Assembly: GCA_947625205.1 (NCBI GenBank)
Contig: CANQNN010000001.1
Coordinates: 62,001-126,000, forward strand
Source of the DNA: an uncultured Lachnospiraceae bacterium
Lineage (GTDB): Bacteria > Bacillota > Clostridia > Lachnospirales > Lachnospiraceae
Reading direction: 5' to 3'
DNA length: 64,000 bases
The notes under the pieces were generated by a model. The model saw nothing but the letters and a program-made list of their open reading frames with translations. It was not told the DNA's origin and ran no database searches. The stretch's first letter is position 1. Every line of letters begins with the position of its first letter. Below, piece after piece: positions 109-31,563 of this stretch. The position numbers were made by a program, and so were the translations under genes.

Positions 109-1206
109 ATGGAATTGATTGAAATTACCCCTGAGGAATATGAAAAAATTGTAGAAAATAAAGAAATATTTTTTATGAAGAAAAAATTTTTAGAATTAAA
201 TAAAAGCAAAGTGGAAAAGGTGCATTATTTTTTAGGATATGACAAGAAAAATCGTCTGGCATTTGCGGTGGGTGAGAAGGAGAATGAATGGAGAGCACCT
301 TATTCTGCACCATTTACTGCGGTTGTGGAATTGCAGAAGATAACGCCAATTGAATATTATTGGGAATTTATTGCTCTTCTGAATCAAACGGCAACAGAAG
401 CAGGAATTCGTAAAATAACTGTTTTGTTACCGCCAGATATTTACGGGGCAGAAAAGAATGCCAAAATGATCAATGCACTTCTGGGAAGTAATTATATGGT
501 GGAATATGAAGAAATAAATTATTCGCTTGATATAAGAGCTTGGGATGCGGATATATACAGGCAGCAGATTGCTCATAATGCCAGAAAGAATCTGCGAATT
601 GCGTTAGAATCGGGTCTTTCACTTGTTCAATGTCTGGAACTTGAAGAAAAAAGGAAAGCATATGAAATTATCAGGATTAATCGCAAAAGTCGTGGCTATC
701 CTTTACGAATGACTTGGGAGCAGGTTCTTGAAACATTAGAAATCGTAAAGCATGATGTTTTTGTGGTACAGAGGGAAGATATTATTATGGCTTCTGCCAT
801 TGTCTTTTATGTATCTGCCCAAATTGTACAGGTCATATATTGGGGAAATATTCCCAATACAGAGGAATATAAGCCGATTAATTTTCTCGCTTATGAATTA
901 ATTGAATATTATAAGGAGCAGGGGATTGAGATGATAGATATAGGACCGTCTTCGGAAAACGGAATACCAAATTATGGACTGTGTAGTTTTAAAGAAAGTA
1001 TTGGATGTAAAGTGACAAGCAAGTATAGACTTAGTATCGATCTTGTAAAGAACGGTTATTATCAATCAAGTTTAAGTGATGAATGTTTGAGGGGGGGGCG
1101 GAAAAATAATAAAAAACTGCATATAGTACTGAATTTTAGCTTGCATATTATAAAAAACATGGATTCGCCTTTTCACTTTATGGAAAGCGGTTTGAAGTGT
1201 GCGTGA
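109..1206 (+). CDS. FemAB/GNAT-like acyltransferase
   Basis: 365 residues, probably cytoplasmic. The second half resembles the BioF2/FemAB-type GNAT fold (Acetyltransf_6): a NARKNLR segment near residue 156, a block with YWGNIPN, then DIGPSS and FKESIGC near residue 300. Such enzymes transfer acyl or aminoacyl groups to sugars or peptidoglycan precursors; the substrate here is unknown. The next gene is a diverged paralogue with the same closing block. Start ATG follows AAAGAGGATG. A run of eight G (1091-1098) falls in codons 328-330; only the present length keeps the frame open to 1206, beside the ribosome site of the next gene. The frame is AT-rich compared with genes beyond 6 kb, which suggests transfer. 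The GNAT call is by motif recognition. Confidence 0.7.
   Translation: MELIEITPEEYEKIVENKEIFFMKKKFLELNKSKVEKVHYFLGYDKKNRLAFAVGEKENEWRAPYSAPFTAVVELQKITPIEYYWEFIALLNQTATEAGIRKITVLLPPDIYGAEKNAKMINALLGSNYMVEYEEINYSLDIRAWDADIYRQQIAHNARKNLRIALESGLSLVQCLELEEKRKAYEIIRINRKSRGYPLRMTWEQVLETLEIVKHDVFVVQREDIIMASAIVFYVSAQIVQVIYWGNIPNTEEYKPINFLAYELIEYYKEQGIEMIDIGPSSENGIPNYGLCSFKESIGCKVTSKYRLSIDLVKNGYYQSSLSDECLRGGRKNNKKLHIVLNFSLHIIKNMDSPFHFMESGLKCA
1091..1098 (+). repeat. G8 homopolymer near the 3' end of an acyltransferase gene
   Basis: Eight consecutive G inside codons 328-330 of the gene at 109-1206. One G more gives a stop nine bases after the tract; one G fewer gives a stop about 25 bases after it. In the present length the frame continues to 1206 and touches the Shine-Dalgarno sequence of the following gene. 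It could work as a slippage site that changes the C terminus and translational coupling. Confidence 0.75.
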
Positions 1207-1219
1207 GGAGGAGAATCAA

Positions 1220-2212
1220 ATGTTTGAAATTGTAAAATATGCTGAAAGTTTTCAAAAACGGTGGGATTTGTTTGTACTGGAAAAAAGTTTGAATGGAACG
1301 TTTTTACAGACAAGAAAGTTTTTAAATTATCACCCGCAAGGTCGATTTATGGATGCTTCTTTAGTGATTTTGCAAGGAAGTACTATTGTAGCGGTTATTC
1401 CGGCACATGATGTTTGGAAAGAAGGAAAGAAGTGTTTTATATCACATGCAGGAAGTACATTTGGCGGTATCGTGATAGATAGAGGAAAGTATAATATTGC
1501 AACAATGGAAGAAATATTTCATTGTTTAGAAGAATATTTAAAATTTGAGAAGTATCAAAAGGCGGTTATGAAAATGACATCAGATATCTTTTCGGAACAA
1601 GATGGAGGTTTGTTTTCATACTATTTATATAAATATGGATGGCAATATTATGCTGAGTTGAGCCTCTGTATTAGATGTAATTGTTTATCGGAAAATATAT
1701 TAGACAGTTTTTCAAATAGTCGTAGGAGAGGGTGCCGATATGCTGAAAAAAATGGAATGGAATTTCAGAAGTTGGAAAATGAGATACAGATAACAGAATT
1801 CTATCAGGTCCTATGTAAGAATTTAAGAAAATATGAAACTGAACCCGTCCATACATTGGCGGAGCTGATGGAATTAAAAAAATATAGATTAAAAAATGAG
1901 ATAGAATTTTACGGAGCATATTGGAAGGGAAAGCTAATTGCTGGATCAATGGTTTTTTGCTTTGGAAAACGGGTATTTCATACGCAGTATCTCGCATCTG
2001 ATTCGGATTATTCGTATCTTTATCCCATGAATTTTCTGGATTATCATATGATTCGTATAGCAAAGGAAAAAGGATTCACTTATTTTTCATTTGGAATTAG
2101 TACGGAGGATCACGGCAAAGTGTTAAATAAGACATTAGCTCAATTCAAAGAAGGATTTGGGTGTGAATATTCAATCAATTATACATATTCAAAAGAAGTT
2201 GGAGGGAAATAG
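1220..2212 (+). CDS. FemAB/GNAT-like acyltransferase, paralogue
   Basis: 330 residues. The ATG at 1220 is preferred over an in-frame GTG at 1199 because GAGGAGGAG lies just upstream of it. The protein resembles its left neighbour: an RRRGCRYAEKNG segment near residue 167 (compare NARKNLR), a central block ending YPMNFLDYHMI, and FGIST followed by FKEGFGC near residue 309. This pattern belongs to FemAB-like acetyltransferases (Acetyltransf_6). The pair probably acts in sequence or on alternative substrates while a surface glycan repeat or peptide bridge is built. It sits in a tight operon: the upstream frame ends 13 bases before this ATG and the next gene starts 6 bases after the stop. Substrate unknown; AT-rich like its neighbours. 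Confidence 0.68.
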   Translation: MFEIVKYAESFQKRWDLFVLEKSLNGTFLQTRKFLNYHPQGRFMDASLVILQGSTIVAVIPAHDVWKEGKKCFISHAGSTFGGIVIDRGKYNIATMEEIFHCLEEYLKFEKYQKAVMKMTSDIFSEQDGGLFSYYLYKYGWQYYAELSLCIRCNCLSENILDSFSNSRRRGCRYAEKNGMEFQKLENEIQITEFYQVLCKNLRKYETEPVHTLAELMELKKYRLKNEIEFYGAYWKGKLIAGSMVFCFGKRVFHTQYLASDSDYSYLYPMNFLDYHMIRIAKEKGFTYFSFGISTEDHGKVLNKTLAQFKEGFGCEYSINYTYSKEVGGK

Positions 2213-2217
2213 TTATT

Positions 2218-3234
2218 ATGAAAGAAACTTTGTTAAGTACGGAAAGAATAGTATTTGCGGGAAATGGTGTGATAGGTGAAGTGTGTTTGAAGGCGCTTCA
2301 AAAAAAATTTACTCAAATTGATATTGTTAAAGCTGATAACGAAAATGTGCAAACCCATAGACGTACAAAGGATAGATTGGTAAATAATATCAATGAGAGT
2401 GTAGCACATTGGGTTTTTCTGGCTGGATGGCATCCTATTATTTCTAAAACTGATTTGCAGAAGAAATGTTATCTTAATATACATGGCTCTTTGTTGCCGA
2501 AATATCGAGGGATACATTCCATTTTTTGGGCCATCATGAATGGAGAAACGGAATTAGGTTATACAATACATGAAGTCAATGAGTTCGTGGATGATGGAGA
2601 TATTTTATATCAGTATAGATTTCCGTATAAAAATTATACATCTGGAGAGGTGCAAAAGCTGTTTTACGAAGATTTAGACAAAAATCTGGGAAAAGTTATA
2701 TCAGATTATATAGAGGGTTTACTTAGTCCTCTAAAACAAAATAGAGAAATGGCAACATGGGTCCCTAAAAGAAATTTGGATGATTGTCTGGTTGATTTTA
2801 GTATGCCTAATCAGTTGCTTCGAAGATTTTTTTTGGCGCTTACGGAGCCATATCCGTTGCCGAGACTAATCCATAAAGGTATATGTTATGAAATTATACA
2901 AAGTGAAATTGTGGATATTGATTATTATTGCGAGTTGGGGCGTGCAGTCAATAGTGACAGCACAGGGGTGTACATCAAAGTGAAAGATGGACTTTTGATT
3001 ATAAAAAAAATTCGCAGTACAGTTTCGGGCGAAATAATAGAGGCAAATAGGGTAATCCGATCTGGATATAGATTTAAATTAGCAGGAGTATGTAATATGA
3101 TGCATGAAAGTTCTCATTTTCACGGATATGTTAACCCTCAAATTGATTTTGAGGGGGGGGGGAAAAATAGATATAGAAGGATAATTTATAAACATAAGAG
3201 CTATTACTGTATTGTTTTGCAGGAGGTGGCTTGA
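2218..3234 (+). CDS. Formyltransferase-fold enzyme, probably sugar N-formyltransferase
   Basis: 338 residues. The N-terminal 200 residues match the formyl_trans_N fold of methionyl-tRNA and sugar formyltransferases: GNGVIGEVCL near residue 15, NIHGSLLPKYRG at 87-98 and VDDGDIL at 124-130. N87, H89 and D125 have the spacing of the known N-H-D catalytic triad, so N10-formyl-tetrahydrofolate-dependent transfer to an amino sugar is likely. Between acyltransferase genes in a polysaccharide locus, a nucleotide-linked amino sugar is a better guess than Met-tRNA. No aminotransferase is visible in the window, so the amino sugar must be made elsewhere. A G10 tract at 3153-3162 in the last 28 codons sets the C terminus; with ten G the stop lies one base before the next ATG. 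Confidence 0.75.
   Translation: MKETLLSTERIVFAGNGVIGEVCLKALQKKFTQIDIVKADNENVQTHRRTKDRLVNNINESVAHWVFLAGWHPIISKTDLQKKCYLNIHGSLLPKYRGIHSIFWAIMNGETELGYTIHEVNEFVDDGDILYQYRFPYKNYTSGEVQKLFYEDLDKNLGKVISDYIEGLLSPLKQNREMATWVPKRNLDDCLVDFSMPNQLLRRFFLALTEPYPLPRLIHKGICYEIIQSEIVDIDYYCELGRAVNSDSTGVYIKVKDGLLIIKKIRSTVSGEIIEANRVIRSGYRFKLAGVCNMMHESSHFHGYVNPQIDFEGGGKNRYRRIIYKHKSYYCIVLQEVA
3153..3162 (+). repeat. G10 homopolymer near the 3' end of a formyltransferase-like gene
   Basis: Ten consecutive G in codons 312-315 of the gene at 2218-3234. With ten G the frame runs to the TGA at 3232-3234, through the ribosome site of the next gene. Nine G would stop near 3180 and eleven near 3170, removing the last 20-odd residues and separating termination from the next start. 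Confidence 0.78.
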
Positions 3235-3235
3235 T

Positions 3236-3940
3236 ATGTTGATTAATACAAAAAAAGATAAAAGCAAAAAATTGATTATTGTAGGAGATGGAGAATTTGG
3301 AGAAATCGCATATGAGTATTTTACATATGATTCGGAATATGAAGTAAAAGCGTTTGCTGTGGAGAAAAAATATCGAGTAAAAAGTGAGTTGTTTGGCAAA
3401 CCCGTAATTGATTTTGAGAATATGCCAGTTATTTATTCAAAGGATATATACGAGGTATTTGTGGCAATTACGTATACGAAGTTTAATTCCGTTAGAACCA
3501 GACTGTACGAACAGTGTAAGAGATGGGGATATCACTGTGCAAGTTATATTAGTTCGCATGCTTTTGTATGGCATAATGTTAAAATAGGAGAAAATACATT
3601 TATTTTTGAGGATAATACAATTCAATATTATGCAGTGATAGGAAATAATACTATTCTTTGGAGTGGAAATCATGTTGGTCACAGGAGTGTAATTGGTAAT
3701 AATTGTTGGTTAACATCTCATGTTGTGATATCTGGTTTTAGTAAAGTGGGTAACGGTTGTTTCTTAGGAGTGAATTCTACAGTATGTGATTGTATAGATA
3801 TTGCTGACGAGATAGTTTTGGGTGCGGGTGCATTGGCAATTAAAAGTCTAAAGGAAAAAGGACAAGTTTATATTGGAAGTCCTGCACATTTAATGGGGAG
3901 GAGCTCTTATGAACAGTTTGGACTGGAAATTTTGAAATAA
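3236..3940 (+). CDS. PglD/NeuD-family sugar O/N-acyltransferase
   Basis: 234 residues. The ATG at 3236 is preferred over an upstream in-frame start because AGGAGGTGG ends just before it; the previous stop codon is one base away. The N-terminal part (KKLIIVGDGEFGEIAYEYF) is the Rossmann-like sugar-nucleotide-binding region of the PglD/NeuD family. From about residue 112 a left-handed parallel beta-helix of hexapeptide repeats follows (VKIGEN, VIGNN, SVIGNN, KVGNG). GNHVGHRS contains H149, the position expected for the catalytic base. The family acetylates UDP-amino sugars or sialic acids with acetyl-CoA. Downstream of a formyltransferase-like gene, the two probably decorate amino groups or hydroxyls of the same glycan. 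The acyl donor cannot be read from sequence. Confidence 0.82.
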   Translation: MLINTKKDKSKKLIIVGDGEFGEIAYEYFTYDSEYEVKAFAVEKKYRVKSELFGKPVIDFENMPVIYSKDIYEVFVAITYTKFNSVRTRLYEQCKRWGYHCASYISSHAFVWHNVKIGENTFIFEDNTIQYYAVIGNNTILWSGNHVGHRSVIGNNCWLTSHVVISGFSKVGNGCFLGVNSTVCDCIDIADEIVLGAGALAIKSLKEKGQVYIGSPAHLMGRSSYEQFGLEILK

Positions 3941-4475: not shown

Positions 4476-5715
4476 TTACGCAGGAAGTTCTACATGGAAA
4501 CCGCGTTTTTCCAATTCGCGTATATAGTGGGATGTTCGGTTCTGATCATGCATTTTACGTCGGGTTTCAAAAAAGGATTCATCAAAATTTGTGCCATATT
4601 TCAGCATAGTATATATGATGACAAGAAGCTTGCGGGCGAGGGCAATAATGGCTTTTTTCGCGCCCTTCTTCTGTTTGAGTTTCCAGTACCAGGCAGACAG
4701 ATAACTGTTACGCTTGCCCGCAATGACCCACGCAACCTCACAGAGCATGCTTTTGACATAAGGGTTGCCTTTAGTGACGGAAGTGCTTTTGCGCTTGCCT
4801 GCGCTCTCATTGTTACCGGGGGGGGGCGAGTCCTGCCCAGGAGCAGATATGCTCAGCAGTTTTAAAGGAATCCATATCCGTCCCAATCTCAGCGATGATG
4901 GAAAGGGAGGCAGTGGCACTGATGCCGGGGATGGTGATGAGCTGCTCAACCTGTGCGGATTTCGGGGAAGCCTCATTGAGGATGGCTGTCTCCACCTCGG
5001 CAAGATGGAAGCACAGCGTGTCATAGTGTTCCAGCATGAGGCTCAGAAAATCACGTTGGTGTTCTGAGAGGGTTCCGTTCAGGGCTGCCAGTATCTCATC
5101 CAGACGTTCCCGGGTTTTGGTCTTAAGACATTGATTGAGGGCATCCCGGTCAATGGATCCATGTTGGATTAGGTGGAGGATGATTCCCCTGCCGGTGACA
5201 CCGAAAATGTCAGAAACGAAAGAGGAAAGCCGGAAACCGGAACTCTGGAGGAATTTTTCAATGCGGTTTTTCTGGGAAGTGATGTCATGGACAATGCTTT
5301 TGCGGTAGCGGGTGAGATGCCGGAGTTCACGGATGGACTTTTCGGGAATAAAACTGGCATTTAGAAGTCCTGCACGCAGGAGTGTAGCGATCCACTCGGC
5401 ATCCCGCATATCAGTCTTCTTGCCGGGGACATTTTTCATATGTCTGGCATTCACAACAAGAAGTGTAAGCTTTTCCGGCGCGGCTTCAAGAACTTCGTAG
5501 AGGGCAATCCAGTAAATACCGGTGCTTTCCATGGCAACATGGGAACAGCCGCTGGAGGTTATCCAGTCACGGAGCTCGGCAAGCCCGGAAGCAAGTGTGG
5601 AAAATTCACGGATTTCAGAAACGGTAGTTTTGCCAATAGGGCCGGAGAGGATGCATGCAACGATGACATCTTTATGTACATCCAGCCCGCAGCATTTTTC
5701 AAGAAGGTCTTTCAT
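4476..5715 (-). pseudogene. IS110-family transposase, frameshifted at a homopolymer
   Basis: The first 300 codons read from the ATG at 5713-5715, preceded by AAAGGAG. They carry the N-terminal RuvC-like DEDD domain: D12 in GLDVHKD, E63 in AMESTGIYW, D102 and D105 in TDMRD. A Transposase_20 region follows (TIPGISATASLSIIAEIG). At WAGLAP the frame is lost in a run of nine C on the coding strand (4818-4826) and stops. In the next frame the conserved continuation PGNNESAGKRKST appears at once, with the serine region typical of the family C terminus, and runs to a stop at 4476. One base fewer or two more would restore about 413 codons, the usual family length. The break may be real slippage or a homopolymer sequencing error. 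Confidence 0.85.
4818..4826 (-). repeat. G9/C9 homopolymer causing the transposase frameshift
   Basis: Nine G on the plus strand (nine C on the coding strand) at the WAGLAP-GNNESAGK junction. Eight would give an uninterrupted transposase with one extra proline; five would give the plain APGNN form. Confidence 0.8.
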
Positions 5716-30865: not shown

Positions 30866-30895
30866 TTGCATTATGGGGGGGGGCTCAGGTTTAAT
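30866..30895 (+). promoter_or_regulatory. Possible phase-variable promoter with G9 spacer tract
   Basis: TTGCAT (30866-30871), 18-base spacer containing nine G at 30875-30883, TTTAAT (30890-30895). One G lost would give the ideal 17-base spacing. The -35 is weak (three of six), so the promoter call is tentative; the tract itself is certain. Confidence 0.35.
30875..30883 (+). repeat. Intergenic G9 homopolymer
   Basis: Nine consecutive G, 117 bases before the receiver-protein start codon, in an otherwise AT-rich segment. Confidence 0.85.
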
Positions 30896-30999: not shown

Positions 31000-31563
31000 A
31001 TGGCGGAGAAGTGGATACTGGTCATTGACGACGATACGGCGAATCTCACGATGGCGAACAGCATGCTCAGCGCGGAAGGGATGCGGGTCAGCTGTGTCAA
31101 GTCGGGGGAAGCGGCAGTCAAATTTCTAAAAATAAACAAACCGGATCTGATCCTTCTGGATGTACATATGCCCGGAATGGACGGATTTGAGACACTTGCG
31201 GCTATCAGAGGGGGACAAGGAGCCGAAGAAAACCTCTCCGGACATACGGAGGGATTCGCGGTTTCGGAAGCCTCCAACATCCCTGTGATCTTCCTGACGG
31301 CAGACGATGACAGCGATACCGAGACAAGAGGACTTCAGGCCGGCGCTATGGATTTTATCAAGAAGCCGTTTGTGCCGGACGTACTGCTCTTACGGGTAAA
31401 CCACGCGATAGAGCTGACCTGTCTGCAGGCGGATCTGGCGCATGAGGTGGAGGAGAAAACGAAGGAAGTGCTGGCGCAGACCAGGAAACTCACCAGACTG
31501 TCCACACAGGTCGTTATGGCTCCTTCGGACTGCTCTTTCTGGAGATCACATAGAGCGGAATAA
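31000..31563 (+). CDS. Receiver-domain response regulator, apparently truncated
   Basis: 187 residues. The receiver fold covers 1-150: acidic triad IDDD near residue 10, phospho-acceptor D54 in LLDVHMPGMDG, FLTADD with the conserved Thr, and IKKPF with the conserved Lys. About 20 extra residues (GGQGAEENLSGHTEGFAV) sit between the third helix and the fourth strand. A coiled coil follows (LAHEVEEKTKEVLAQTRKLTRLSTQVVMA). In related proteins that coil leads into HD-GYP or GGDEF output; here the frame ends 15 residues later in an unrelated tail (PSDCSFWRSHRAE). The output domain seems lost, leaving a CheY-like receiver that may still act by protein contact. Confidence 0.8.
   Translation: MAEKWILVIDDDTANLTMANSMLSAEGMRVSCVKSGEAAVKFLKINKPDLILLDVHMPGMDGFETLAAIRGGQGAEENLSGHTEGFAVSEASNIPVIFLTADDDSDTETRGLQAGAMDFIKKPFVPDVLLLRVNHAIELTCLQADLAHEVEEKTKEVLAQTRKLTRLSTQVVMAPSDCSFWRSHRAE

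What the first reader, a model, noticed from the sequence alone, without database searches (positions are those of the whole stretch)
1091..3162. G tracts near 3' ends that gate translational coupling in a surface-glycan operon
Two consecutive modification genes (109-1206 and 2218-3234) each hold a long G run (G8, G10) close to the 3' end. In both, only the present length lets the frame run up to the ribosome site of the next gene: 1206 against a site at about 1205-1213, and 3234 against a start at 3236. A change of one G stops translation about 50-115 bases earlier and swaps the C terminus. The tracts therefore could switch both the tail of the first enzyme and the output of the second, a two-step phase-variable arrangement. 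Both tracts are now in the coupled state. Slippage of G tracts is established elsewhere; the coupling effect here is inference. Homopolymer sequencing error is a real alternative.
Basis: partly seen in the sequence, partly recalled or inferred. Interest (0 to 1): 0.72.

Follow-up and report, generated by a model that had tools for sequence, protein, structure and literature searches.

The report
Poly-G switches gating next-gene translation
A gut bacterium carries dozens of slippery runs of about nine Gs, and two of them, at the ends of sugar-modifying genes, look able to switch the translation of the following gene by deciding whether ribosomes open an RNA hairpin.

Summary
The tracts and frames are real: G8 at 1091-1098 and G10 at 3153-3162, each near the 3' end of a surface-glycan gene; only the present length (mod 3) runs to the next gene. 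They belong to a genome-wide set: 78 runs of G8 or longer (12 G8, 60 G9, 6 G10) and no G7. The same inversion holds in 23 of 25 genus genomes but in 3 of 16 from other families of the order. It resembles the Campylobacter poly-G phasome, here in a Lachnospiraceae commensal with intact MutS1. The coupling idea gains computed support: at both junctions the ribosome site and start codon lie in a hairpin (opening cost 12.8 and 12.6 kcal/mol; control median 5.3; 1 of 81 controls as high), whose 5' arm lies beyond the alternative stops and is predicted to open in the coupled frame. A third 3' tract, in another formyltransferase gene, has the same layout and is now uncoupled. Homologous cores end before the tracts. 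No reads or reporters were available, so switching is unproven. Verdict: a new variant of poly-G phase variation.

The parts
109..1206 (+). GNAT/FemAB-like transferase gene, 365 aa with G8; homologous part ends near residue 320
   Evidence: no Pfam hit; weak NCBIfam hit TIGR03019 far below cut-off; genus homologs of 320 and 322 aa end there
1091..1098 (+). G8 tract; other phases stop translation at 1109 or 1126
1158..1173 (+). hairpin arm pairing with the ribosome site and start codon of the next gene
1206..1222 (+). AGGAGG (1206-1211) to ATG (1220-1222) of the next gene, sequestered
   Evidence: opening cost 12.83 kcal/mol, 1 of 81 controls as high
1220..2212 (+). FemAB/GNAT-like gene whose translation would be gated by the G8 tract
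   Evidence: Pfam PF13480, PF02388
2218..3234 (+). formyltransferase gene, 338 aa with G10; aligned core ends near residue 291
   Evidence: Pfam PF00551, PF02911
3153..3162 (+). G10 tract; other phases stop translation at 3170 or 3184
3193..3208 (+). hairpin arm pairing with the ribosome site and start codon of the next gene
   Evidence: fold z -3.57, 1 of 200 shuffles as stable
3221..3238 (+). AGGAGG (3221-3226) to ATG (3236-3238) of the next gene, sequestered
   Evidence: opening cost 12.62 kcal/mol, 1 of 81 controls as high
3236..3940 (+). NeuD/PglD-like sugar acetyltransferase gene whose translation would be gated by the G10 tract
   Evidence: Pfam hexapeptide; TIGR03570 155.8 bits, just under its cut-off of 160.8
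4818..4826 (+). G9 (C9 in the gene) inside an IS110-type transposase; frame broken here; same tract class
30875..30883 (+). intergenic G9, same tract class, upstream of a response-regulator-like gene at 31000
   Evidence: gene label from reading the translation, not searched

Best explanation
The two tracts are members of a genome-wide poly-G phase-variation repertoire (78 tracts, typical length G9) in a Lachnospiraceae commensal. Both sit in tails just beyond the part of the enzyme shared with homologs. Tract length mod 3 decides where the upstream ribosome stops. In one phase it reads through the 5' arm of a hairpin that otherwise hides the ribosome site and start codon of the next gene, so that gene (a FemAB-like transferase; a NeuD/PglD-like acetyltransferase) is translated. 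In the other two phases the ribosome stops 50-97 bases earlier, the hairpin stays mostly shut, and the downstream modification enzyme is made poorly. The upstream enzyme stays mostly intact, with a different tail. Shown: tracts, frames, genome-wide excess. Computed: hairpins and opening costs. Inferred: slippage in cells and the effect on protein output.
For: Frames. 78 tracts of G8 or longer and 0 G7. Same peak in two relatives, G9 in 39 of 48 and 69 of 83 tracts. G8-or-longer outnumbers G7 in 23 of 25 genus genomes, 3 of 16 outside. Opening costs 12.83 and 12.62, plus 13.11 at a third 3' tract; 1 of 81 controls as high for each, 0 of 14 controls with a perfect AGGAGG; 1, 1 and 7 of 300 upstream shuffles. 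Cost stays 10.9-15.6 with a ribosome at the alternative stops and falls to 2.3-6.7 at 11 of 12 sampled coupled-frame positions. Homologous cores end before the tract. Four tracts in 7 kb here, 14 in an 88-kb contig (2.4 expected, Poisson P 2e-7, not corrected for picking the richest contig).
Against: No reads, so no within-population variation was seen. Energies are single-sequence predictions and move with the folding window (9.7-12.9 for junction 1). With no close orthologs covariation cannot be tested. Both sites carry a perfect AGGAGG, which may start translation despite structure. Two of the three sites came from the finding itself. Of 12 rows with one-phase-coupled geometry (11 tracts, three genomes) 5 have the coupled stop as the farthest; the other two of these cost 9.7 and 7.3. 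The remaining 7 rows, which I take for internal starts, cost 6.8-14.6, so a high cost is not peculiar to the 3'-tail sites; in at least 4 of their tracts the tract itself lies in the folded stretch. At the third site one coupled position (11.6) is not opened. A ribosome stopping at 3184 would touch the outer pairs of the hairpin (10.9 against 15.6 at 3170). Junction 1 as a whole fold is only z -1.58 (9 of 200 shuffles).
Confidence: 0.55

Rival explanations
1. C-terminal phase variation only: the tracts slip and swap the tail of each enzyme, changing its activity, interactions or stability; the next gene is not affected.
For: Published class with 3' poly-G tracts in Helicobacter canadensis (PMC2823697, passages). 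Frames give three tails per gene.
Against: Tails are absent from the homologs compared and lie outside the aligned cores. It does not account for the strongly sequestered downstream starts.
Confidence: 0.22
2. Neutral by-product: G runs beyond about G6 drift by slippage to an equilibrium near G9 everywhere; tails are simply where frameshifts are tolerated, and the hairpins are coincidence or ordinary constitutive coupling.
For: The G9 peak covers tracts inside and outside called genes. Strand bias (207 of 209 on the G-rich strand) mostly follows GC skew. Only 6 of the 78 tracts have a matched counterpart among the fetched tract flanks of two relatives. Other tract-near starts also cost more to open than the control median.
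Against: Clustering in glycan loci; 6 tracts in strong sigma-70 spacers against 0.56 expected; a promoter-spacer tract shared by three genomes; all three short 3'-tail junctions strongly sequestered.
Confidence: 0.21
3. Homopolymer sequencing or assembly error made or changed the tract lengths.
For: No reads available; the genome is a 44-contig assembly. One relative has G11 30 bases from a contig end.
Against: No G7 at all with 60 G9 is not what indel noise gives; A/T runs are normal; two other assemblies show the same peak.
Confidence: 0.02

Closest known systems
Poly-G phasome of Campylobacter (PMC6321876; passages, section 16)
   Same: Mononucleotide G tracts with a peak at G9 (53% there; 60 of 78 here), in ORFs and promoters; tens per genome.
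   Different: Here a Lachnospiraceae (Bacillota) genus with intact MutS1; 77 of 78 tracts lie on the G-rich strand, in some cases against the direction of the gene (poly-C in the gene; 5% of Campylobacter ORF tracts are of that kind).
C-terminal phase variation in Helicobacter canadensis (PMC2823697, passages)
   Same: 3' poly-G tracts whose slippage changes only the C-terminus; includes a sugar-biosynthesis gene.
   Different: The passages speak of the C-terminus only; 'translational coupling' and 'downstream gene' occur 0 times in that text. Here the tail also covers a hairpin closing the next start.
Classical translational coupling by ribosome-site sequestration (recalled)
   Same: Stop next to start; start hidden in structure; upstream translation opens it.
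   Different: Normally constitutive; here a slippery tract would make it stochastic and heritable.
Promoter-spacer poly-G/C phase variation, e.g. Neisseria porA, Bordetella fim (recalled)
   Same: Six tracts in this genome lie between -35 and -10-like boxes.
   Different: Not the mechanism at the two tracts of the finding.

Membership tests
SSR (poly-G) phase variation | G/C tract of 7-8 or more, more common than chance | tested here: met
   78 tracts of G8 or longer, 0 G7; window shuffles
SSR (poly-G) phase variation | unit change alters frame or promoter spacing | tested here: met
   promoter spacers
SSR (poly-G) phase variation | tract length varies within a population | not testable with these tools
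   no reads; between genomes 4 of 11 matched loci differ (G8/G9, G9/G8/G9, G9/G11/G9, G8/G9)
SSR (poly-G) phase variation | length change switches expression or phenotype | not testable with these tools
   needs reporters
SSR (poly-G) phase variation | loci enriched for surface structures | tested here: inconclusive
   clusters in glycan loci, but only part of the tract genes was annotated, no background rate was measured, and several are not of this kind (carboxylesterase, sensor kinase)
C-terminal phase variation | tract near the 3' end, functional domains upstream | tested here: met
   homologous cores end before the tract
Translational coupling | upstream stop adjacent to downstream start | tested here: met
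   13 and 1 bases from stop to start
Translational coupling | downstream start sequestered and opened by upstream translation | tested here: met
   in silico only:
Translational coupling | downstream output falls when upstream translation stops early | not testable with these tools
   needs reporters

The most novel reading that the evidence does not exclude
Phase-variable translational coupling as a repeated device: 3' poly-G tracts placed in dispensable tails of sugar-modifying enzymes act as frame gates for hairpins that hide the next gene's start, so one slippage event switches the downstream modification enzyme while leaving the upstream one working. At least three such units would exist in this genome, in two glycan loci, two now coupled and one now uncoupled.
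Probability: 0.45. Interest if true: 0.72.

Novelty: new variant of a known kind. Interest (0 to 1): 0.6.

Why it matters
It would add a fourth place where slippery tracts act, besides promoter, 5' coding frame and C-terminus: gating of the next gene's ribosome access. It would also extend Campylobacter-scale poly-G phase variation to a gut Bacillota genus, where surface glycan diversity within one strain matters for phage, IgA and bile encounters (general knowledge). The 25 genus genomes counted hold 1 to 95 tracts, so the genus suits a test of why some lineages keep such tracts.

Tried and rejected
Loss of mismatch repair as cause: rejected for MutS1. 40 of 41 genomes match TIGR01070, 38 over the cut-off, G000 intact. 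MutL was not tested.

Leading-strand T-to-G hotspots after G runs (GnT, PMC12344412, passages) as the maker of the tracts: not supported. T follows 80 of 209 long tracts but only 67 of 322 G5 and 422 of 2212 G4 runs, the opposite of tracts eating a following T. Strand bias is mostly what GC skew predicts (ratio 18-24 expected at G9; 207:2 seen).

Insertion of G9 by a mobile element: not pursued. Flanks share no motif by eye.

IS110 copies as natural replicates of tract length: one match in this genome (5 of 18 candidates scored); four weak partial matches in other genus genomes.

Orthologs of the two genes: none close in 77 genus genomes. For gene 109, five genomes match, own included, best others 33-35%. 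For gene 2218 every genome matches, but the listed hits outside the own gene are 47% identical or less, and the four I aligned look like tRNA formyltransferase by eye. The first genome-contig scan found nothing; the second used a tract-bearing histidine kinase instead.

Literature: among the listings (25 of 78 shown; 25 of 69; 15 of 62; 12 of 26; 0 found; 12 of 67) I saw no paper on poly-G phase variation in Lachnospiraceae; the one that pairs the words (PMC6437147) speaks of Campylobacter tracts (passages). No paper holds translational coupling, phase variation and homopolymeric tract together; the nearest listing (9 papers) shows none on this by title. Only open-licence PMC papers were searched, and of the listings I saw titles and abstract starts. 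PMC2831843 was seen in passages only.

Full report
What is there. The window is bases 62001-126000 of contig C1 of a 2.91-Mb, 44-contig genome. The finding lies at the 3' end of a surface-glycan cluster. From about 9 kb upstream of the window it reads: FdtA-like isomerase, glycosyltransferase, a 711-aa protein without a family, radical SAM protein, DegT/DnrJ aminotransferase, acyltransferase, flippase, then the four genes of the finding: GNAT/FemAB-like (109-1206), FemAB-like (1220-2212), formyltransferase (2218-3234), NeuD/PglD-like acetyltransferase (3236-3940). An IS110-type element follows.

Observation. G8 and G10 and their frames are as described. The two genes are first and third of four, not consecutive.

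Genome scale. The genome has 78 runs of G8 or longer: 12 G8, 60 G9, 6 G10, and no G7 anywhere. In 475,532 fetched bases there are 184 G5, 6 G6 and 0 G7 counting both strands, while A and T runs decline smoothly; these stretches were chosen round tracts. In the genus (25 genomes, own included) runs of G8 or longer outnumber G7 in 23; in 16 genomes of other families of the order they do so in 3, with one tie at 0:0 (my count from the tables). Two further genomes that share the kinase locus show the same peak, 39 of 48 and 69 of 83 at G9. Campylobacter shows 53% G9 and 26% G10 (PMC6321876, section 16). MutS1 is intact.

Where tracts sit. By skew of the fetched stretch, 77 of 78, 48 of 48 and 82 of 83 tracts lie on the G-rich strand. 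Six lie between strong -35 and -10-like boxes (score 10 or more of 12, out of 156 site-strands) against 0.56 expected from 5000 random sites. One such spacer tract, TTGACA-G9-TATAAT in this genome, recurs in the two other genomes, whose downstream flanks are 71-79% alike. In the same cluster, just upstream of the window, a G10 tract separates two halves of an acyltransferase into different frames (profile positions 2-187 and 178-325, each piece alone under Pfam's cut-off), and a G9 tract sits in-frame in the radical SAM gene. Contig C11 holds 14 tracts in 88 kb (2.4 expected, P 2e-7, uncorrected) among glycan genes.

Variation. At a histidine-kinase locus I compared 42 of the 80 fetched relatives: four close ones carry the tract (G9, G9, G9, G11; the G11 lies 30 bases from a contig end) and 38 lack it in the aligned stretch. 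Of 11 tract loci matched between genomes, some by one flank only, 4 differ in length: G8/G9, G9/G8/G9, G9/G11/G9 and G8/G9 (my grouping of 18 between-genome pairs). These are differences between genomes, not within a population.

The tails. Homologs of gene 109 end at about residue 320, before the tract at residue 328. The formyltransferase matches E. coli-type methionyl-tRNA formyltransferase structures up to residue 266, and four genus homologs end at about its residue 291; its tract is at residue 312. A third 3' tract (L089:18845, contig C11) lies in another N-formyltransferase gene, whose C-terminal domain ends at residue 241, just before the tract at residue 249. So a slip in these tracts should spare the catalytic part.

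The coupling test. I computed the cost of opening the stretch from ribosome site to start codon within -100/+35. It is 12.83 (start 1220), 12.62 (start 3236) and 13.11 kcal/mol (start after L089:18845). Controls were 81 mechanically found junctions in the fetched stretches of three genomes and the window (open frames of 300 bases or more, ATG, five or six of six bases of AGGAGG, stop close to start). Their median is 5.29 and one is as high as each; of 14 with perfect AGGAGG none is. Shuffling the upstream bases reaches the observed cost in 1, 1 and 7 of 300. An earlier, smaller set of 62 rows with some duplicates gave the same picture (3 and 4 of 62 as high, the sites' own copies and an overlapping start among them); there the start at 2218, which follows no 3' tract, costs only 3.4. 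The arms that close the starts (1158-1173; 3193-3208) lie downstream of the alternative stop codons (1109/1126; 3170/3184). With a 28-base ribosome footprint parked at an alternative stop the cost stays 12.5-13.1, 10.9-15.6 and 11.6-12.5. With the footprint moving in the coupled frame it drops to 2.3-4.7, 3.6-6.4 and 3.8-6.7, except one position at the third site (11.6). Folding windows change the values (9.7-12.9, 12.4-16.2, 11.1-13.2) but not the picture (there the second site was taken two bases longer).

How I chose sites, and what speaks against. Two sites came from the finding. The third came from a scan of the tracts of three genomes for 'one of three phases ends at a next start with a good ribosome site' (12 rows on 11 tracts). 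In 5 rows the coupled stop is the farthest of the three: the three above, plus a poly-C case in a response-regulator gene before a sensor kinase (L111, 9.7 kcal/mol; genes) and one in a repeat array (L221, 7.3). In the other 7 rows another phase runs farther, so I take them for internal starts; they cost 6.8, 9.0, 9.3, 11.2, 11.9, 14.6 and 14.6, also above the control median. At L091, L210, L233 and L252 the tract itself lies within the folded 100 bases; at the three main sites it lies outside the fold or leaving it out keeps the cost (second site 15.2-16.2 with a 60-base upstream window). In one search the third site was scored at an upstream TTG (10.9); the ATG was scored. Junction 1 folded as a whole is only modestly stable (z -1.58, 9 of 200 shuffles; junction 2 z -3.57, 1 of 200).

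Reading. Known: poly-G slippage and 3' C-terminal switching (PMC2823697, passages). New here, as far as the searches go: a genus of Lachnospiraceae with a Campylobacter-like poly-G repertoire, and 3' tracts that appear built to gate access to the next gene. Slippage in cells, downstream output and any benefit are inferred.

Noticed in passing
window 4818-4826 and 4476-5715 (-): An IS110-type transposase gene carries a C9 tract in its second domain and is out of frame there; one match found in the genome.
   Followed up: partly
L063 7059 (genome C1:60058), 2 kb upstream of the window: G10 tract puts the two halves of an acyltransferase in different frames, a natural OFF state in the same glycan cluster.
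   Followed up: partly
L080, L083, L103, L104, L106, L071:7023: Poly-G tracts inside strong sigma-70-like promoter spacers, best-scoring spacers of 16 or 19 bases; the L080 one is shared by three genomes.
   Followed up: partly
L088-L091 (contig C11): 14 G tracts in one 88-kb contig with glycan genes, a candidate phase-variable super-locus.
   Followed up: partly
L107 3373-3381 and 3565-3573: A G9 tract forms the very junction of an acetyltransferase gene and the next open frame, so it may change ribosome-site spacing; a second G9 lies 190 bases on in that frame.
   Followed up: no
L221 (genome G095, contig C10): Five long G tracts in 2.3 kb; at least four sit in near-identical repeats (85-99% alike flanks), perhaps a repeat-rich surface protein or cassette array.
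   Followed up: no
L252 (genome G094): A G9 tract itself forms the ribosome-site-like sequence a few bases before a possible TTG start.
   Followed up: no
G028 (another family of the order): 39 runs of G8 or longer and 84 of G7 in 1.9 Mb: rich in G runs without the missing G7 class.
   Followed up: no
all tracts of three genomes: T follows 38% of long tracts but about 20% of G4/G5 runs; no explanation.
   Followed up: no
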